From Polyangiaceae bacterium (GTDB taxonomy: Bacteria > Myxococcota_A > Polyangia > Polyangiales > Polyangiaceae), in contig JANXOF010000053.1 in the NCBI GenBank assembly GCA_025353725.1, positions 186,001-250,000 of the forward strand: a stretch of 64,000 nucleotides of DNA, in the 5' to 3' direction. The notes under the pieces were generated by a model. The model was not told where the DNA came from, searched no databases, and was given only the letters and a program-made list of their open reading frames with translations. This document shows, in pieces, positions 59,710 through 64,000 of the stretch (position 1 is its first letter; each line of letters opens with the position of its first letter). A program made the position numbers and the translations under genes.

Positions 59710-60143
59710 GGTGCCTGCGAAATCGGTTCGCGTGGTTCGCTTGCGCGGACGAGTTCACGTGCTTCAGGCAGCCGCGCGGACTCGAGAATCACGACCGCTG
59801 CGGCAACGCCCGCATCGTGCGTAATGCTGACGTGCCACGAGTCCGCGCCGAACGCCGCGACCATCGCCATGGCTTTACCCTTCAACGCAAGCGTAGGGCG
59901 GCCGCTCGACGTGCGACGCACTTCGACCTCGTGCCAGCCCACCCCTTTTGCGCCGTCGAGCGCCTTCGCGAAGGCCTCTTTCGCGGCGAATCGGCCTGCG
60001 ACAGTGGTAGCAACATCCCGTCCTACGAGCTCGCTACGCTCTGACTCGCTGCAAATCCGCGCGATAAACCGCTCGCCGTTTCGCTCGATAACGCGACGCA
60101 TTCGCTCAATCGAGCAAACGTCGATTCCAAGCCCAACAATCAC
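59706..60143 (-). CDS. acpS: Holo-[acyl-carrier-protein] synthase
   Basis: Transfers phosphopantetheine from CoA to acyl carrier protein. It starts I-V-G-L-G-I-D-V-C-S-I-E-R-M, with the magnesium-binding Asp at residue 8, and has R-F-A-A-K-E-A-F-A-K-A-L near 52. About 20 extra C-terminal residues follow the usual 125-residue core. The GTG at 60143 overlaps the pdxJ stop. The pdxJ-acpS pair is a common bacterial arrangement. Confidence 0.95.
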   Translation of the reverse strand: MIVGLGIDVCSIERMRRVIERNGERFIARICSESERSELVGRDVATTVAGRFAAKEAFAKALDGAKGVGWHEVEVRRTSSGRPTLALKGKAMAMVAAFGADSWHVSITHDAGVAAAVVILESARLPEARELVRASEPREPISQAP

Positions 60144-60871
60144 CGGTGCGCGCGCCCGAGGGCGATGGCCGCGAGCAGCGAACGCACGGCGCCTGCAAGG
60201 CCAGCGAACACGGCATCCGCTATCACCGAGTGCCCGATGTTCAGCTCGATAATCTCAGGAATCGCGACGAGTGCCGCGGCATTTCGCGTCGTCAGTCCGT
60301 GACCGGCCGCGATCTCGAGACCGAGTTCGTGTCCGTACCGCGCCGCCACGGCGAGCCTGTCGAGCTCGCGTTGAAGGGTCTTTGGATCGCCAAGCGCATG
60401 CGCGTACTCGCCGGTATGAAGTTCGATTTGCTCGACTCCGAGGGCGCGCGACGCCTCGATTTGAGCGATTTCCGGCGCGACAAAAAGGCTAACTTTGATC
60501 GTCGCCGCCTGCAGCGCGGCCACATGAGCGCGCAGTTTGGGCGAAGCGTTGACGACCTCAAGCCCCCCTTCCGTGGTGCGTTCTTCGCGGCGCTCCGGGA
60601 CCAGCGTGACCGTGTCGGGATGCACTCTGCACGCGATAGCCACCATCTCGTCCGTGGCGGCCATCTCGAGATTAAAGGTCGCGGAGAGCATCGCGCGTAA
60701 CTGCTCCACGTCGGCGTCGCGGATATGACGGCGGTCTTCGCGAAGGTGAGCCGTGATGCCATGAGCGCCGGCCTCCAGACACACCCGCGCGGCCTCGACG
60801 GGGTCGGGGTAGGTCGTCCCCCGGGCATTACGGAGAGTCGCGACGTGATCAATATTAACGTGCAATCGCAT
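60140..60871 (-). CDS. pdxJ: Pyridoxine 5'-phosphate synthase
   Basis: Closes the pyridoxine ring in the DXP-dependent vitamin B6 pathway. It begins R-L-H-V-N-I-D-H-V-A-T-L-R-N-A-R-G, the PdxJ signature, and has I-T-A-H-L-R-E-D-R-R-H-I near 40, E-L-H-T-G near 150 and A-A-G-H-G-L-T near 190. Start ATG 60871; an in-frame TTG sits one codon upstream. It heads the pdxJ-acpS-nnr operon. Confidence 0.96.
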   Translation of the reverse strand: MRLHVNIDHVATLRNARGTTYPDPVEAARVCLEAGAHGITAHLREDRRHIRDADVEQLRAMLSATFNLEMAATDEMVAIACRVHPDTVTLVPERREERTTEGGLEVVNASPKLRAHVAALQAATIKVSLFVAPEIAQIEASRALGVEQIELHTGEYAHALGDPKTLQRELDRLAVAARYGHELGLEIAAGHGLTTRNAAALVAIPEIIELNIGHSVIADAVFAGLAGAVRSLLAAIALGRAHR

Positions 60872-61324
60872 CAAGCGCGAAAACTAGCACAACGCGGCGA
60901 ATCCCGAACGCGATGCCGTCCGGCCCACCCGCGTGATGCCTGCCGCGGTCGCCGCGTTCGAGCAGTTAGCGGTCGAGCACGACCCATGAGACCAAAGGCC
61001 AGGGTGAAGACCGTCTACGGCCACGAAAAACATCCAAGCTTTGCGCCCGACCGCAAGTCCGAGCTTCTTCTGCCGATGTCGCATTTCGCACGGAGGTCCA
61101 CTATCGCCGGCACCCCGGCCTTGCAGCACAATCGATGTTCACGCTCGCGACAAACGCGGCGAGCTGGAATTCTTCGTCTGCACACGAGTTGCCTCCAGCT
61201 TCGCAGCGCGTGAGGCTGAGCCACTGAGACACTGAGCCACGACGAAACCGAGCCCAAGCCGCAGTCCGATTCCCTTACTCGCGAGGCGGTTCGCCGCTAG
61301 CGGGGTGAGTGGTCGAAGAGCCCG
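60872..61324. other. Gap between the pdxJ operon and the brxHI-like gene
   Basis: About 450 bases with no gene that I can support. The left end should hold the pdxJ promoter. At 61217-61240 three tandem 8-bp units (tgagccac, tgagacac, tgagccac) occur. This gap marks the left boundary of the likely defence locus. Confidence 0.55.
61217..61240. repeat. Three tandem copies of an 8-bp unit
   Basis: tgagccac tgagacac tgagccac, directly adjacent, in the non-coding gap between pdxJ and the brxHI-like gene. Its role is unknown. Confidence 0.7.
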
Positions 61325-63433
61325 TCACTTCGCCTGCAAAATGATTGCAGCCGCACCGCGGACGTCCAGGGCCCTATCCGCAACGTATTCATGGAGTAAC
61401 GAGTCAGGCAAGCACGGTCGAAATTTCGAAAGGCGGGCGCGGCCGGCGGAGTTTTCGGCGAACCGTAAAGCATCCTCGCGCGTCGGCCCGCCGCGCACGG
61501 CAAGCTCGCGCGCGAAGGCCCGGAGCCGCACCACGCTCTCGCCCGCGCCGTCCTTGCACGTAATCGACTTGTCGTTGACGACGCACTTTCCGCCCAGTTC
61601 CACTTCGATCATCTTCGAGAGCAAAATATTCGCGCGGCCTCCGGCGAAGGTCCACCACCGGATCGTGTCATGATCCGCCACCATCGGTGAGGGTTCGTCG
61701 CGGAGGAAGGCATACTCCACGCGACTCCCCCGCATGATTTCTCGCGCGCGCGCCGACCAAGCGGGGCTCACTTCATCGGAGATCAAAACGCGCCGCATGG
61801 CCTGACATAGCTCGTAGCTTAGGAAAGCGGGCGACCCTGACCAGCGCGCAGATGGCGCGTAGTCCGCCGGCCTCACAGAACAAGTTCCTTTGCTCCAATC
61901 CGTGTGGATGACCTCCCAAGAGCGCCCCGCCAGCGAAAACGCGCTGCGGTTCGTGCCTGCGTCAAGCGACCCGAGGAACTCGGCATCCACCGTGCCGACG
62001 TCCTGCTTATCCCAGAGCACCGAGATGAAGCGCGGCGTTGAGAAGACAGCATAGAGCTCCGCGAAATTTCGCCGACCGTAGAGTTTTTCACCTGTCGGTC
62101 CGAGCGACAGCTTGCCTTCCTGGTCGAGCAGAATCTCTTTCTCAATCATGTGAGCCACGACCGCGTCGCGTTCGGCCGACGTGATGTCCGCGAACGGCGT
62201 CGCCCCTTCGATCCAGGCCGGCCAATCGGTTTTACCAACTCCGCCACGTTGAATCGAAAGGGCCAAGATCTGATGCGCCATGATGTGGAACGCTCGACGC
62301 GACGGACGCACCGACTCGACAAAGCCGTCTTGGTGCAGCTGCAAGATTGCCGCGGCTTGTAAAACCGCGTCGTCCTTCACGGCGAGAAATGTACAGTTCG
62401 ACGTCGTGCCTGCCCGACGGCCGGTGCGACCCATCCGCTGTAGAAAGCTTGCAACACTGCTCGGACTGTTAATCTGCAGCACGTAATCGAGGTCGCCGAT
62501 GTCGATCCCGAGCTCGAGCGCGCTCGTCGACACGATCACGCAATCGCTTTCGTCCCGAAAAGCGCGCTCCGAGTCGCGGCGCTCACTTGCGGCAAGGGAT
62601 CCATGTATCAAGAACGTATTGACCCCGTCGCGGCGGAGCAAGTGGCCGAGGTCTTCAACCCCCTTCCGCGAGTCGACGAACACGAGGCGTTTGCTGCCAG
62701 GATAAAGCTGACGAACGACTTGCGCCGAGTTTTCGAGCGTGGCGACGTAATCCAACTTCACGCCCGGCGAGGTCAGTGGCTTGGGCGGAGAAACGATAGC
62801 CGCATCACGCTTTGAGCGGCCTTGAATCCAGCGGAGTATTTCCTCAGGATTGCCGACCGTCGCCGAGAGGCCAATCCGTTGAACGTCGTTTCCGCAGAAC
62901 CGCGTCAGTCGCTCAAGTACCGACGCGAGGTGCGCGCCCCGGTCGTCCGCCGCAAACGCGTGAACTTCATCGATGACTACGGCTCGGAGCCCCGCGAAGA
63001 TCCGCGCCTCCGGCACACGCGCGCTCATTAGCATCGCTTCGAGCGACTCGGGAGTGGTCAACAGGATGTCGGCGGGCTCCCTAAGGAACGCCTTTCGCGC
63101 AGACGGGCCCGTATCTCCATGCCACTTGAATACACGCCGACCGACGGTCCCCGCGTAGCGAGCAACCCGGTCTTCTTGGTTATTCAGTAGTGCGCGAATC
63201 GGAGACAGGTAGAGGAGACTCACGGGTTTCCACTCGCCCGCCTCCATCGCCGAGAGCAGCGGGAAGAAGGCGGCCTCGGTTTTGCCACCCGCGGTCGGGG
63301 CAAGCACGACGCAGTTCTTCCCGTCGAGTACCGTTTCGATCGTCATCAGCTGCACGGGGCGCAGCTCGCGAAAACCGAGTGTGTTGACGACCTGGTACTG
63401 AAAAGCCGGAGTCAGGCGCTCGAAGGCGCTCAC
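61325..63433 (-). CDS. brxHI: Lhr-like DEAD/DEAH-box helicase, BrxHI type
   Basis: A 702-residue superfamily 2 helicase. Motif Q and I are at the N-terminus (F-R-E-L-R-P-V-Q and A-P-T-A-G-G-K-T, near residues 21-52). Motif II is V-V-I-D-E-V-H-A-F (near 153), motif III L-S-A-T-V-G-N, motif V A-L-E-L-G-I-D-I-G-D and motif VI Q-R-M-G-R-T-G-R-R-A. D-E-V-H with G-D-L-D-Y-V-L-Q after motif V is typical of Lhr-like enzymes. The C-terminal 300 residues match no common helicase extension that I know. The length and its place directly after a BrxD-like gene fit BrxHI of BREX type 2/6 loci. The GTG at 63433 overlaps the upstream stop (GTGA). Confidence 0.85.
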   Translation of the reverse strand: MSAFERLTPAFQYQVVNTLGFRELRPVQLMTIETVLDGKNCVVLAPTAGGKTEAAFFPLLSAMEAGEWKPVSLLYLSPIRALLNNQEDRVARYAGTVGRRVFKWHGDTGPSARKAFLREPADILLTTPESLEAMLMSARVPEARIFAGLRAVVIDEVHAFAADDRGAHLASVLERLTRFCGNDVQRIGLSATVGNPEEILRWIQGRSKRDAAIVSPPKPLTSPGVKLDYVATLENSAQVVRQLYPGSKRLVFVDSRKGVEDLGHLLRRDGVNTFLIHGSLAASERRDSERAFRDESDCVIVSTSALELGIDIGDLDYVLQINSPSSVASFLQRMGRTGRRAGTTSNCTFLAVKDDAVLQAAAILQLHQDGFVESVRPSRRAFHIMAHQILALSIQRGGVGKTDWPAWIEGATPFADITSAERDAVVAHMIEKEILLDQEGKLSLGPTGEKLYGRRNFAELYAVFSTPRFISVLWDKQDVGTVDAEFLGSLDAGTNRSAFSLAGRSWEVIHTDWSKGTCSVRPADYAPSARWSGSPAFLSYELCQAMRRVLISDEVSPAWSARAREIMRGSRVEYAFLRDEPSPMVADHDTIRWWTFAGGRANILLSKMIEVELGGKCVVNDKSITCKDGAGESVVRLRAFARELAVRGGPTREDALRFAENSAGRARLSKFRPCLPDSLLHEYVADRALDVRGAAAIILQAK

Positions 63434-64000
63434 TTCGGACCGTCACGCCCATCGGGCTTCGAGACGTCTAGCTCGAGGTCGTCCACGCTTGTCGCGATGC
63501 CTGCCGCAGCGCGCTCCTCCGCCGTCATTTCGCGACCCTCGAGCACGAGTCTAAAATGCACGCTCGGGTCGTATGCTTCGTGTTCGTCGACCTTGTCGAG
63601 GAGCTCTCCCACGAGTTTTCTTAGAAACAGGCGCGGCGCGATACCGACCGAACTGCCAAGCTTCCCCGTGATCCCGTTGGCGAGATCACGAATCACGCCG
63701 TCGCTCACTTTGGCTTCGATGCGCGCTGGATGGTCCGACGGATAGAGCGCCCGAACGCGCCGCCCCACCTCTACCAAGCGTTCTATATTGAACGGAGGGA
63801 GCCGGATTTGCACCGCGCGCGCGCTGTCGAAGTCCGAGTTGCCGGAGAAGTCGACGTGCAGGCGTTGCTCGAGCGGCGCGAGGCGCTTAATCCCTTGCGG
63901 CCCTTCGAAGAATTGTGTGGTCCCAGTGATAAGCAAGTAGAGGCCGGGGAACTGTCCTGCGTCGATGTCGTCCATCAGCTGCCGAAGCGCGTTCAGGCTA
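63430..64000 (-). CDS. brxD: BrxD-like P-loop ATPase, C-terminal part (runs off the window)
   Basis: The frame is open to the right edge (S-L-N-A-L-R-Q-L before the first Met), so only about the last 190 residues are seen; the ATP-binding P-loop should lie beyond base 64000. Visible motifs are L-M-D-D-I-D-A-G-Q-F-P-G-L-Y-L-L-I-T-G-T, L-A-P-L-E-Q-R-L-H-V-D-F, R-A-V-Q-I-R-L-P-P-F, V-G-R-R-V-R-A-L-Y and a C-terminal acidic tail, which I recognise from the BREX ATPase BrxD (DUF2791, BrxC/BrxD family). It is coupled to the helicase gene downstream. Related DUF2791 ATPases also occur in other defence loci, so the parent system needs the missing neighbours. Confidence 0.8.
   Translation of the reverse strand, partial: SLNALRQLMDDIDAGQFPGLYLLITGTTQFFEGPQGIKRLAPLEQRLHVDFSGNSDFDSARAVQIRLPPFNIERLVEVGRRVRALYPSDHPARIEAKVSDGVIRDLANGITGKLGSSVGIAPRLFLRKLVGELLDKVDEHEAYDPSVHFRLVLEGREMTAEERAAAGIATSVDDLELDVSKPDGRDGPK

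What the first reader, a model, noticed from the sequence alone, without database searches (positions are those of the whole stretch)
61325..64000. Tail of a BREX-type (or related) phage-defence operon at the right edge
A BrxD-like DUF2791 ATPase (C-terminal 190 residues) overlaps by GTGA an Lhr-like helicase of BrxHI length. In published BREX type 2 (Pgl-like) and type 6 loci brxD and brxHI are the last two genes, and here they are the last two in the transcript, with a gene-free gap after them. Core genes (pglZ, pglX, and brxC or pglY, perhaps pglW) should lie just beyond base 64000 on the same strand. If they do not, this ATPase-helicase pair may be a stand-alone or undescribed defence module.
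Basis: partly seen in the sequence, partly recalled or inferred. Interest (0 to 1): 0.75.

Follow-up and report, generated by a model that had tools for sequence, protein, structure and literature searches.

The report
Type-2 BREX with dead-methylase companion gene
The two genes at the window's edge are the end of a known kind of bacterial phage-defence system (type-2 BREX, or Pgl); the unexpected part is an unannotated companion gene beside its sensor kinase that looks like a methyltransferase without its active site and was not detected in relatives of the strains usually studied.

Summary
Observation right, interpretation mostly right. Window 61325-63433 (-) is BrxHI and 63430-64000 (-) the C-terminal part of BrxD, overlapping by GTGA. 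Just right of the window pglZ and pglY follow on the same strand (operon pglY-pglZ-brxD-brxHI). That contig ends in a cut IS4 element. The genome's one full PglX and one PglW lie on another contig that starts with a truncated copy of the same IS. All six type-2 BREX genes are present with intact motifs; linkage of the two halves is unproven. Relatives show the contiguous order W-X-Y-Z-D-HI.

Unexpected: directly upstream of pglW sits a 232-aa gene without a match in Pfam, NCBIfam or PADLOC. It precedes PglW in 23 of the 24 genomes (of 377) where it is clear, and is fused to PglW in one. Models of two subfamilies resemble N6-adenine DNA methyltransferases (HsdM; PglX for one model), yet 0 of 21 members keep NPPY. 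It is missing from one well-supported PglW clade and undetected in 394 of 394 actinomycete genomes, 52 of which carry PglW. I propose a pseudo-methyltransferase partner of PglW; its function is inferred, untested.

The parts
61325..63433 (-). brxHI, SF2 helicase, 702 aa, last gene of the operon; motifs APTAGGKT, DEVH, QRMGRTGR present
63430..64000 (-). brxD, C-terminal part of the AAA+ ATPase gene (from the GTG at L003:4782 the whole gene is 450 codons, L003:3430-4782, so it runs 782 bases past the window edge); followed upstream on the same strand by pglZ (L003:4779-7625) and pglY (L003:7622-11320 from an internal ATG), then divergently by an XRE-ImmA gene (L003:11610-12725) and a cut IS4 element to the contig end
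   Evidence: L003 position + 60000 = window position
60875..61324 (.). about 450 bases without a convincing gene between the end of brxHI and the next same-strand gene (60140-60874, -)
   Evidence: ORF list; sequence printed

Best explanation
brxD-brxHI are the 3' end of a type-2 BREX (Pgl) defence system. Shown: an operon pglY-pglZ-brxD-brxHI with overlapping genes on the window's contig, and pglW-pglX on a second contig, each half bounded by a copy of the same IS4 element. Inferred from the literature: PglX methylates adenine in DNA, PglW (NERD, kinase, DNA-binding and inactive STAND domains) senses and signals, PglY and BrxD are AAA+ ATPases, BrxHI a helicase perhaps loaded by BrxD, and PglZ the phosphatase-fold effector. 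New here: a conserved seventh gene directly upstream of pglW (own copy C81:11758-12456, -) encodes a truncated N6-adenine-methyltransferase fold without the catalytic NPPY motif. I propose that it works as PglW's partner: it holds PglW on PglX or on DNA, or reads DNA or SAM state, and so switches the kinase. Its fold, its missing catalytic motif and its tie to PglW are supported by computation; its role is inferred.
For: Six genes. Motifs: PglX DPTCGSG and NPPY, PglY and BrxD Walker A, PglW HRDIKPAN, PglZ FDG and SDHG. One PglY match, one full PglX and one PglW above cut-off in the genome, consistent with one system. Contiguous order in relatives. Companion gene: own copy without a hit in Pfam, PADLOC or NCBIfam; other members likewise. 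Found in 28 of 377 genomes of the phylum sample, 24 with E <= 1.5e-14; in 23 of those 24 it lies on the same contig and strand within 1 kb upstream of a PglW match. In one frame with PglW in G086. AlphaFold model pLDDT 91.8; VIA best row BREX PglX 8c45, Z 9.5 over 215 of 232 residues, and the first 16 rows are all DNA methyltransferases or methyltransferase-bearing restriction enzymes. A second model from the divergent subfamily: pLDDT 86.5, Foldseek E 5.6e-4, prob 1.00 to an HsdM-type protein, VIA Z 12.2 over 220 of 249. Motif count: 0 of 21 NPPY; 7 of 21 keep LELPG; PglX control 12 of 12 NPPY. PglW tree: 7 of the 8 rows without the gene form one clade, 100/99.
Against: Linkage of the two BREX halves in this genome is not shown: C35's end overlaps C52 and C53, C81's end overlaps C80 and C88, and the outer ends of C53 and C80 lie in sequence shared with other contigs. 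The first companion model has no Foldseek match at E <= 0.001 (best 0.057), and Z 9.5 is not far above the 7-8 that the tool calls common. The second model's 50 listed rows hold HsdM-type and type IIG proteins but no PglX, so 'methyltransferase fold' is better supported than 'PglX-like'. The two models share one alignment row (L081), so they are not fully independent. Profile comparison with PglX finds nothing. Exceptions to the link with PglW: G306 (homologue on a contig without a PglW match) and G013 (homologue beside a convergent brxHI). The own PglY scores below NCBIfam's PglY cut-off. No function is tested anywhere.
Confidence: 0.82

Rival explanations
1. Ordinary type-2 BREX; the companion gene is a lineage-specific passenger or remnant of a decayed methyltransferase with no role in defence.
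For: Missing from one PglW clade and not detected in 394 of 394 actinomycete genomes, although 52 of 394 have PglW. Two homologues sit away from PglW.
Against: Kept as an open frame at the same place before pglW across deep branches of the PglW tree, in one frame with PglW in one genome, with nearly invariant residues in alignment A2 such as W41, R31, R32, D52, R53 and D55. A decaying gene would not be expected to show this.
Confidence: 0.2
2. The companion is a decoy or guard for phage anti-restriction proteins such as Ocr, which bind HsdM and PglX: binding of the inhibitor to the dead methyltransferase would trigger PglW as a backup nuclease/kinase.
For: PglW carries NERD and kinase domains, and PMC12839542 proposes it as a sensory hub with effectors (section 22 with its sub-sections, read).
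Against: Nothing tested. Those entries are listed because the methyltransferase is in them. The companion lacks the rest of the methyltransferase, including the target-recognition parts.
Confidence: 0.12
3. Two separated BREX blocks: pglY-pglZ-brxD-brxHI and pglW-pglX were split by IS4-mediated rearrangement, and the system is dead or dormant in this strain.
For: Both contig ends are IS4 copies, one truncated. An IS end interrupts the short ORF after the XRE-ImmA gene. The contig-end overlaps of the two ends lead to different contigs.
Against: All six genes are full length with intact motifs. pglWX and pglYZ are separate operons 6 kbp apart in S. coelicolor (PMC4365076, passage), and in 9 of 19 relative loci with both genes in hand 1.5 kb or more separates pglX from pglY.
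Confidence: 0.25
4. Type 6 BREX or the Shango system rather than type 2.
For: SngB and SngC models match BrxD and BrxHI.
Against: PglZ matches the type-2 model (464 bits; type 3 only 48). PglW is present. SngC 417 bits against BrxHI 918, SngB 110 against BrxD 608.
Confidence: 0.02

Closest known systems
Type-2 BREX / phage growth limitation (Pgl) system of Streptomyces coelicolor
   Same: All six type-2 genes (pglW, X, Y, Z, brxD, brxHI); pglWX and pglYZ as separate blocks (PMC4365076, passage)
   Different: PglW from outside the clade that holds the one actinobacterial row, an extra companion gene before pglW, and an XRE-ImmA gene divergent from pglY; S. coelicolor's own sequence was not compared
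HsdM M subunits (2okc, 3khk) and PglX/BrxX methyltransferases (8c45, 8q56, 9ewz)
   Same: The companion gene's predicted fold: helical N-terminal domain followed by the Rossmann-like methyltransferase core
Shango (SngA-SngB-SngC; SngA recalled)
   Same: BrxD-like ATPase and BrxHI-like helicase pair
   Different: Model scores far lower than for BrxD and BrxHI; here PglY and PglZ are in the same operon

Membership tests
Type-2 BREX (Pgl) | PglZ of the type-2 subfamily | tested here: met
   NF033446 464.2 bits, cut-off 200
Type-2 BREX (Pgl) | PglY/BrxC large ATPase | tested here: met
   PADLOC PDLC02488 1169.7 bits over 39-1251; NCBIfam PglY is the best NCBIfam model at 758 bits but under its cut-off of 1700
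Type-2 BREX (Pgl) | PglX methyltransferase with SAM motif and NPPY | tested here: met
   NF033451 1164.7 bits with neighbours, cut-off 400; DPTCGSG and NPPY present; on contig C81
Type-2 BREX (Pgl) | PglW NERD-kinase protein | tested here: met
   NF033442 1015.5 bits, cut-off 990; NERD and kinase domains; on contig C81
Type-2 BREX (Pgl) | BrxD and BrxHI pair | tested here: met
   NF033438 597.8 bits, cut-off 350; PDLC02503 917.7 bits
Type-2 BREX (Pgl) | all six genes in one locus | tested here: inconclusive
   two contigs, both ending in IS4 copies; joins ambiguous
Type-2 BREX (Pgl) | phage restriction and DNA methylation | not testable with these tools
   needs phage assays and methylation data
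Type-6 BREX | brxE, brxA, brxB beside the core | tested here: inconclusive
   not among the hits of the six C35 proteins scanned; no genome-wide search for BrxE/A/B was run
Shango | SngB and SngC as best models | tested here: not met
   SngB 110.2 against BrxD 607.6; SngC 416.8 against BrxHI 917.7 bits
N6-adenine DNA methyltransferase (companion gene) | fold: helical domain plus methyltransferase core | tested here: met
   two predicted models; VIA Z 9.5 and 12.2; Foldseek best E 0.057 (not significant) and 5.6e-4
N6-adenine DNA methyltransferase (companion gene) | catalytic motif IV of the NPPY type | tested here: not met
   0 of 21 against 12 of 12 PglX
N6-adenine DNA methyltransferase (companion gene) | SAM motif I | tested here: inconclusive
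   LELPG in 7 of 21, degenerate in 14 of 21, own copy included; SAM binding not testable here

The most novel reading that the evidence does not exclude
Type-2 BREX has an undescribed seventh component: a truncated, catalytically dead N6-adenine-methyltransferase fold encoded just before, and once fused to, the sensor kinase PglW. It may be ancestral and have been lost in the lineage that includes the actinobacterial systems on which the Pgl model rests. It would couple PglW to methylation, either as a reader of DNA or SAM state, as a dock for PglX, or as a decoy for phage inhibitors of methyltransferases.
Probability: 0.5. Interest if true: 0.7.

Novelty: new variant of a known kind. Interest (0 to 1): 0.5.

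Why it matters
The BREX call itself is ordinary. The companion gene is not: how PglW senses infection and how it relates to PglX methylation is open in type-2 BREX (PMC12839542 proposes PglW as a sensory hub, section 22 read; PMC4365076 reports its kinase activity, passages). A dead methyltransferase tied to PglW gives a concrete, testable link between the methylation arm and the kinase arm, and would mean that the Streptomyces model lacks a part found in other lineages.

Tried and rejected
The search for related loci with the single PglY protein found nothing in genome contigs. With the PglW alignment it returned mostly other kinases; only L083 of the 80 loci listed matched nearly the whole query, so that set was not used for counts. 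hhalign of the companion against PglX and against PglW found nothing. The PDB sequence search found only marginal matches to fructose-bisphosphatase (E 0.17), and the viral fold library nothing at E <= 0.001. Tracing the assembly outward from C53 and C80 failed because their outer ends are shared with other contigs. A literature search for the MADS relative of PglW gave no paper on it among the 12 listed. RosmerTA was considered for the XRE-ImmA gene (PADLOC RmrA 100 bits; the system's name is recalled), but the cut 28-aa ORF after it matches nothing. One plasmid homologue has a 166-aa gene after it with a sub-threshold PIN match (20.8 bits, cut-off 23.6). That is a lead only.

Not in print: the claim rests on PMC12839542 (sections 12 and 22 read; three term searches of the main text, with no occurrence of 'upstream of PglW', 'HsdM', 'inactive methyltransferase' or 'inactive MTase'; figures and supplements not seen), passages of PMC4365076 and PMC9009780, and the listings of searches. 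A listing in the supplementary data of PMC12839542 is possible, since those data hold its gene neighbourhoods.

Full report
What is in the window. The right edge carries brxHI (61325-63433, -) and the C-terminal part of brxD (63430-64000, -), joined by a GTGA overlap. Profile searches place them clearly in BrxHI and BrxD. The window is G000:C35:186001-250000 and the contig ends at 259797. Beyond the window on the same strand follow pglZ (948 aa, overlapping brxD by GTGA) and pglY (1232 aa from the ATG at L003:11320, 1269 aa from the first start codon, overlapping pglZ by ATGA). Divergent from pglY is an XRE-ImmA (peptidase M78) gene, then a short ORF cut by the left end of an IS4-family element, which runs into the contig end.

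Where pglX and pglW are. The ORFs of C35 to its end hold neither. A search of the genome with the type-2 PglX model finds one full-length match, on C81:3933-7340. Upstream of it in the same direction lies PglW, 1442 aa. Downstream of pglX follow a TIGR04255-like gene (28.3 bits, cut-off 30) and three more genes without a convincing family. C81 begins with a truncated copy of the same IS4 element, 98 percent identical to the one that ends C35. If the two ends were joined, the six BREX genes would read in the same direction in the canonical order. But the 141-base overlaps lead from C35 to C52 or C53 and from C81 to C80 or C88, and the outer ends of C53 and C80 are shared with other contigs; other ends were not traced. 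Linkage is therefore plausible and unproven. In S. coelicolor pglWX and pglYZ are two operons 6 kbp apart (PMC4365076, passage seen).

Relatives. The PglY protein finds matches in 38 of 183 genomes of the order. I fetched the surroundings of 20 of the PglY places listed there, mostly by score, and later 18 more genomes, and mapped them by blastp against the own proteins. Several carry the whole contiguous order companion, W, X, Y, Z, D, HI: G169 (its PglY frame has one internal TGA), G016, G047, G051, G165 and G164. G197 has pglY directly after pglW in the stretch seen, so the order is not universal. In 19 loci with both pglX and pglY in hand (one pglX cut, G060), 9 have 1.5 kb or more between them (G047, G092, G069, first G164 locus, G014, G125, G212, G152, G426; my count). 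Ten proteins picked from seven of these slots match AAA_21 ATPases (5), DUF4276 (2, one just under its cut-off), Schlafen AlbA_2, a NERD-helicase protein and a DEAD helicase, in line with the auxiliary effectors described in PMC12839542 (passages).

The companion gene. Directly upstream of pglW (own copy C81:11758-12456, -, 232 aa) lies a gene with no match in Pfam, PADLOC or NCBIfam at E <= 0.1; members of its divergent subfamily also match nothing in Pfam (6 tested) or PADLOC (2 tested). With alignment A2 (11 rows) it is found in 28 of 377 genomes of the phylum sample. Twenty-four are clear (E <= 1.5e-14) and four are weak or partial (G179, G284, G466, G436). In 23 of the 24 it lies on the same contig and strand, within 1 kb upstream of a PglW match (coordinates). 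In G086 both lie in one frame of 1646 aa. The exception is G306, where the homologue lies on a contig without a PglW match and the PglW contig has only 530 bases upstream. Outside that sample, G013 has a homologue immediately beside a convergent brxHI, with no PglW on the contig.

Distribution. In the 377 genomes, 31 have a PglW match of 268 bits or more (my cut; the next match, 232 bits, covers only positions 13-714 of 1391). Of these 24 have the companion and 7 do not (G197, G257, G422, G395, G205, G366, G223). For 5 of the 7 at least 1.7 kb upstream was in hand and held no companion by profile; for 2 the contig ended. In the class of an actinobacterial genome reached through L083, 0 of 394 genomes have a companion match while 52 of 394 have PglW at E <= 1e-150 (apparently the same draw, as the handles coincide). 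The same profile does ring in the phylum sample, which serves as its positive control. Twelve of those PglW loci, searched with both companion profiles, gave nothing; one (L237) had under 200 bases before the longest frame. A PglW tree of 26 rows puts 7 of the 8 rows labelled as lacking it (including the actinobacterial one and one with no upstream data) in one clade with 100/99 support; the eighth is G306. Midpoint rooting would fit one loss, but the root is not established, two rows are long, and a gain cannot be excluded.

Its fold. AlphaFold gives a confident model (pLDDT 91.8, pTM 0.90): a helical N-terminal domain and a Rossmann-like domain. Foldseek's best PDB match is an HsdM-type protein, E 0.057, not significant alone. 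VIA-align 2 ranks first the Salmonella BREX PglX (8c45, Z 9.5, 215 of 232 aligned, rmsd 4.0); the first 16 rows are all DNA methyltransferases or restriction enzymes that carry one (N6-adenine type by recall), aligned over 173-216 residues from end to end, and below these most rows align the Rossmann part only. A model from the divergent subfamily (A4, 7 rows, of which L081 is also in A2) gives stronger matches: Foldseek E 5.6e-4, prob 1.00; VIA Z 12.2 over 220 of 249; the first ten rows are all of that kind, though PglX is not among the 50 listed. The two subfamilies find each other by profile. No profile match to PglX was found. The NPPY motif is absent in 21 of 21 members examined and present in 12 of 12 PglX. 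A motif-I-like LELPG stretch is kept in 7 of 21 and degenerate in 14 of 21, own copy included. That LELPGTGG resembles motif I of class I methyltransferases is recalled knowledge.

How it most likely works. From the literature: PglX methylates adenine, PglW is a kinase with NERD and DNA-binding parts, and BrxD may load BrxHI (PMC12839542, section 22, read; PMC4365076, passages). Inferred here: the companion is a pseudo-methyltransferase that partners PglW. The fusion and fixed gene order argue for physical or stoichiometric coupling. A methyltransferase fold without the catalytic motif suits reading or docking rather than modifying. I give about even odds that it is a true functional component of type-2 BREX in these lineages.

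Comparison and verdict. As a system this is type-2 BREX, with one feature (single locus) inconclusive and function untestable here. The variant part is the companion gene. I found no mention of it in the passages and sections seen of the most recent survey nor in four literature searches (listings), but that survey's figures and supplementary neighbourhood data were not seen.

Noticed in passing
L003:11610-12725 (+), window equivalent 71610-72725: XRE-ImmA (peptidase M78) gene divergent from pglY. A homologue on a Neotabrizicola plasmid (L229) is divergent from genes annotated as multiubiquitin, E2 and ThiF proteins and is followed by a 166-aa gene with a sub-threshold PIN match, which suggests a regulator module beside defence operons.
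   Followed up: partly
L003:12697-12780 and onward: A 28-residue ORF overlapping the end of the XRE-ImmA gene is cut by the left end of an IS4 element; it may be the start of a lost partner gene. Several contig ends of this genome lie in copies of that element.
   Followed up: partly
L008:602-3720 (-): Downstream of pglX: a TIGR04255-like gene (just under the cut-off) and three genes without a convincing family.
   Followed up: partly
L008:13055-14527 (-): Upstream of the companion gene: a protein with a sub-threshold PD-(D/E)XK match and a 230-aa protein whose start resembles AriA, GajA and OLD ATPases, perhaps a broken defence gene.
   Followed up: partly
L212:3999-4766 (+) (G306): A companion homologue away from PglW, followed by a gene that looks like DUF262 (name recalled, not searched) and an ATPase-like gene; possibly a second context for this pseudo-methyltransferase.
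   Followed up: partly
L067:5283-6017 (+) (G013): A companion homologue immediately beside a convergent brxHI, without pglW on the contig.
   Followed up: no
L195:3866-9999 (+) (G197): pglY directly follows pglW (overlapping ends) with no pglX between them in the stretch seen.
   Followed up: no
pglX-pglY interval in relatives, e.g. L054:14912-16986, L210:14823-16726: The interval holds varied cargo, in two genomes an AAA_21 ATPase paired with DUF4276, which looks like an insertion hot spot.
   Followed up: partly
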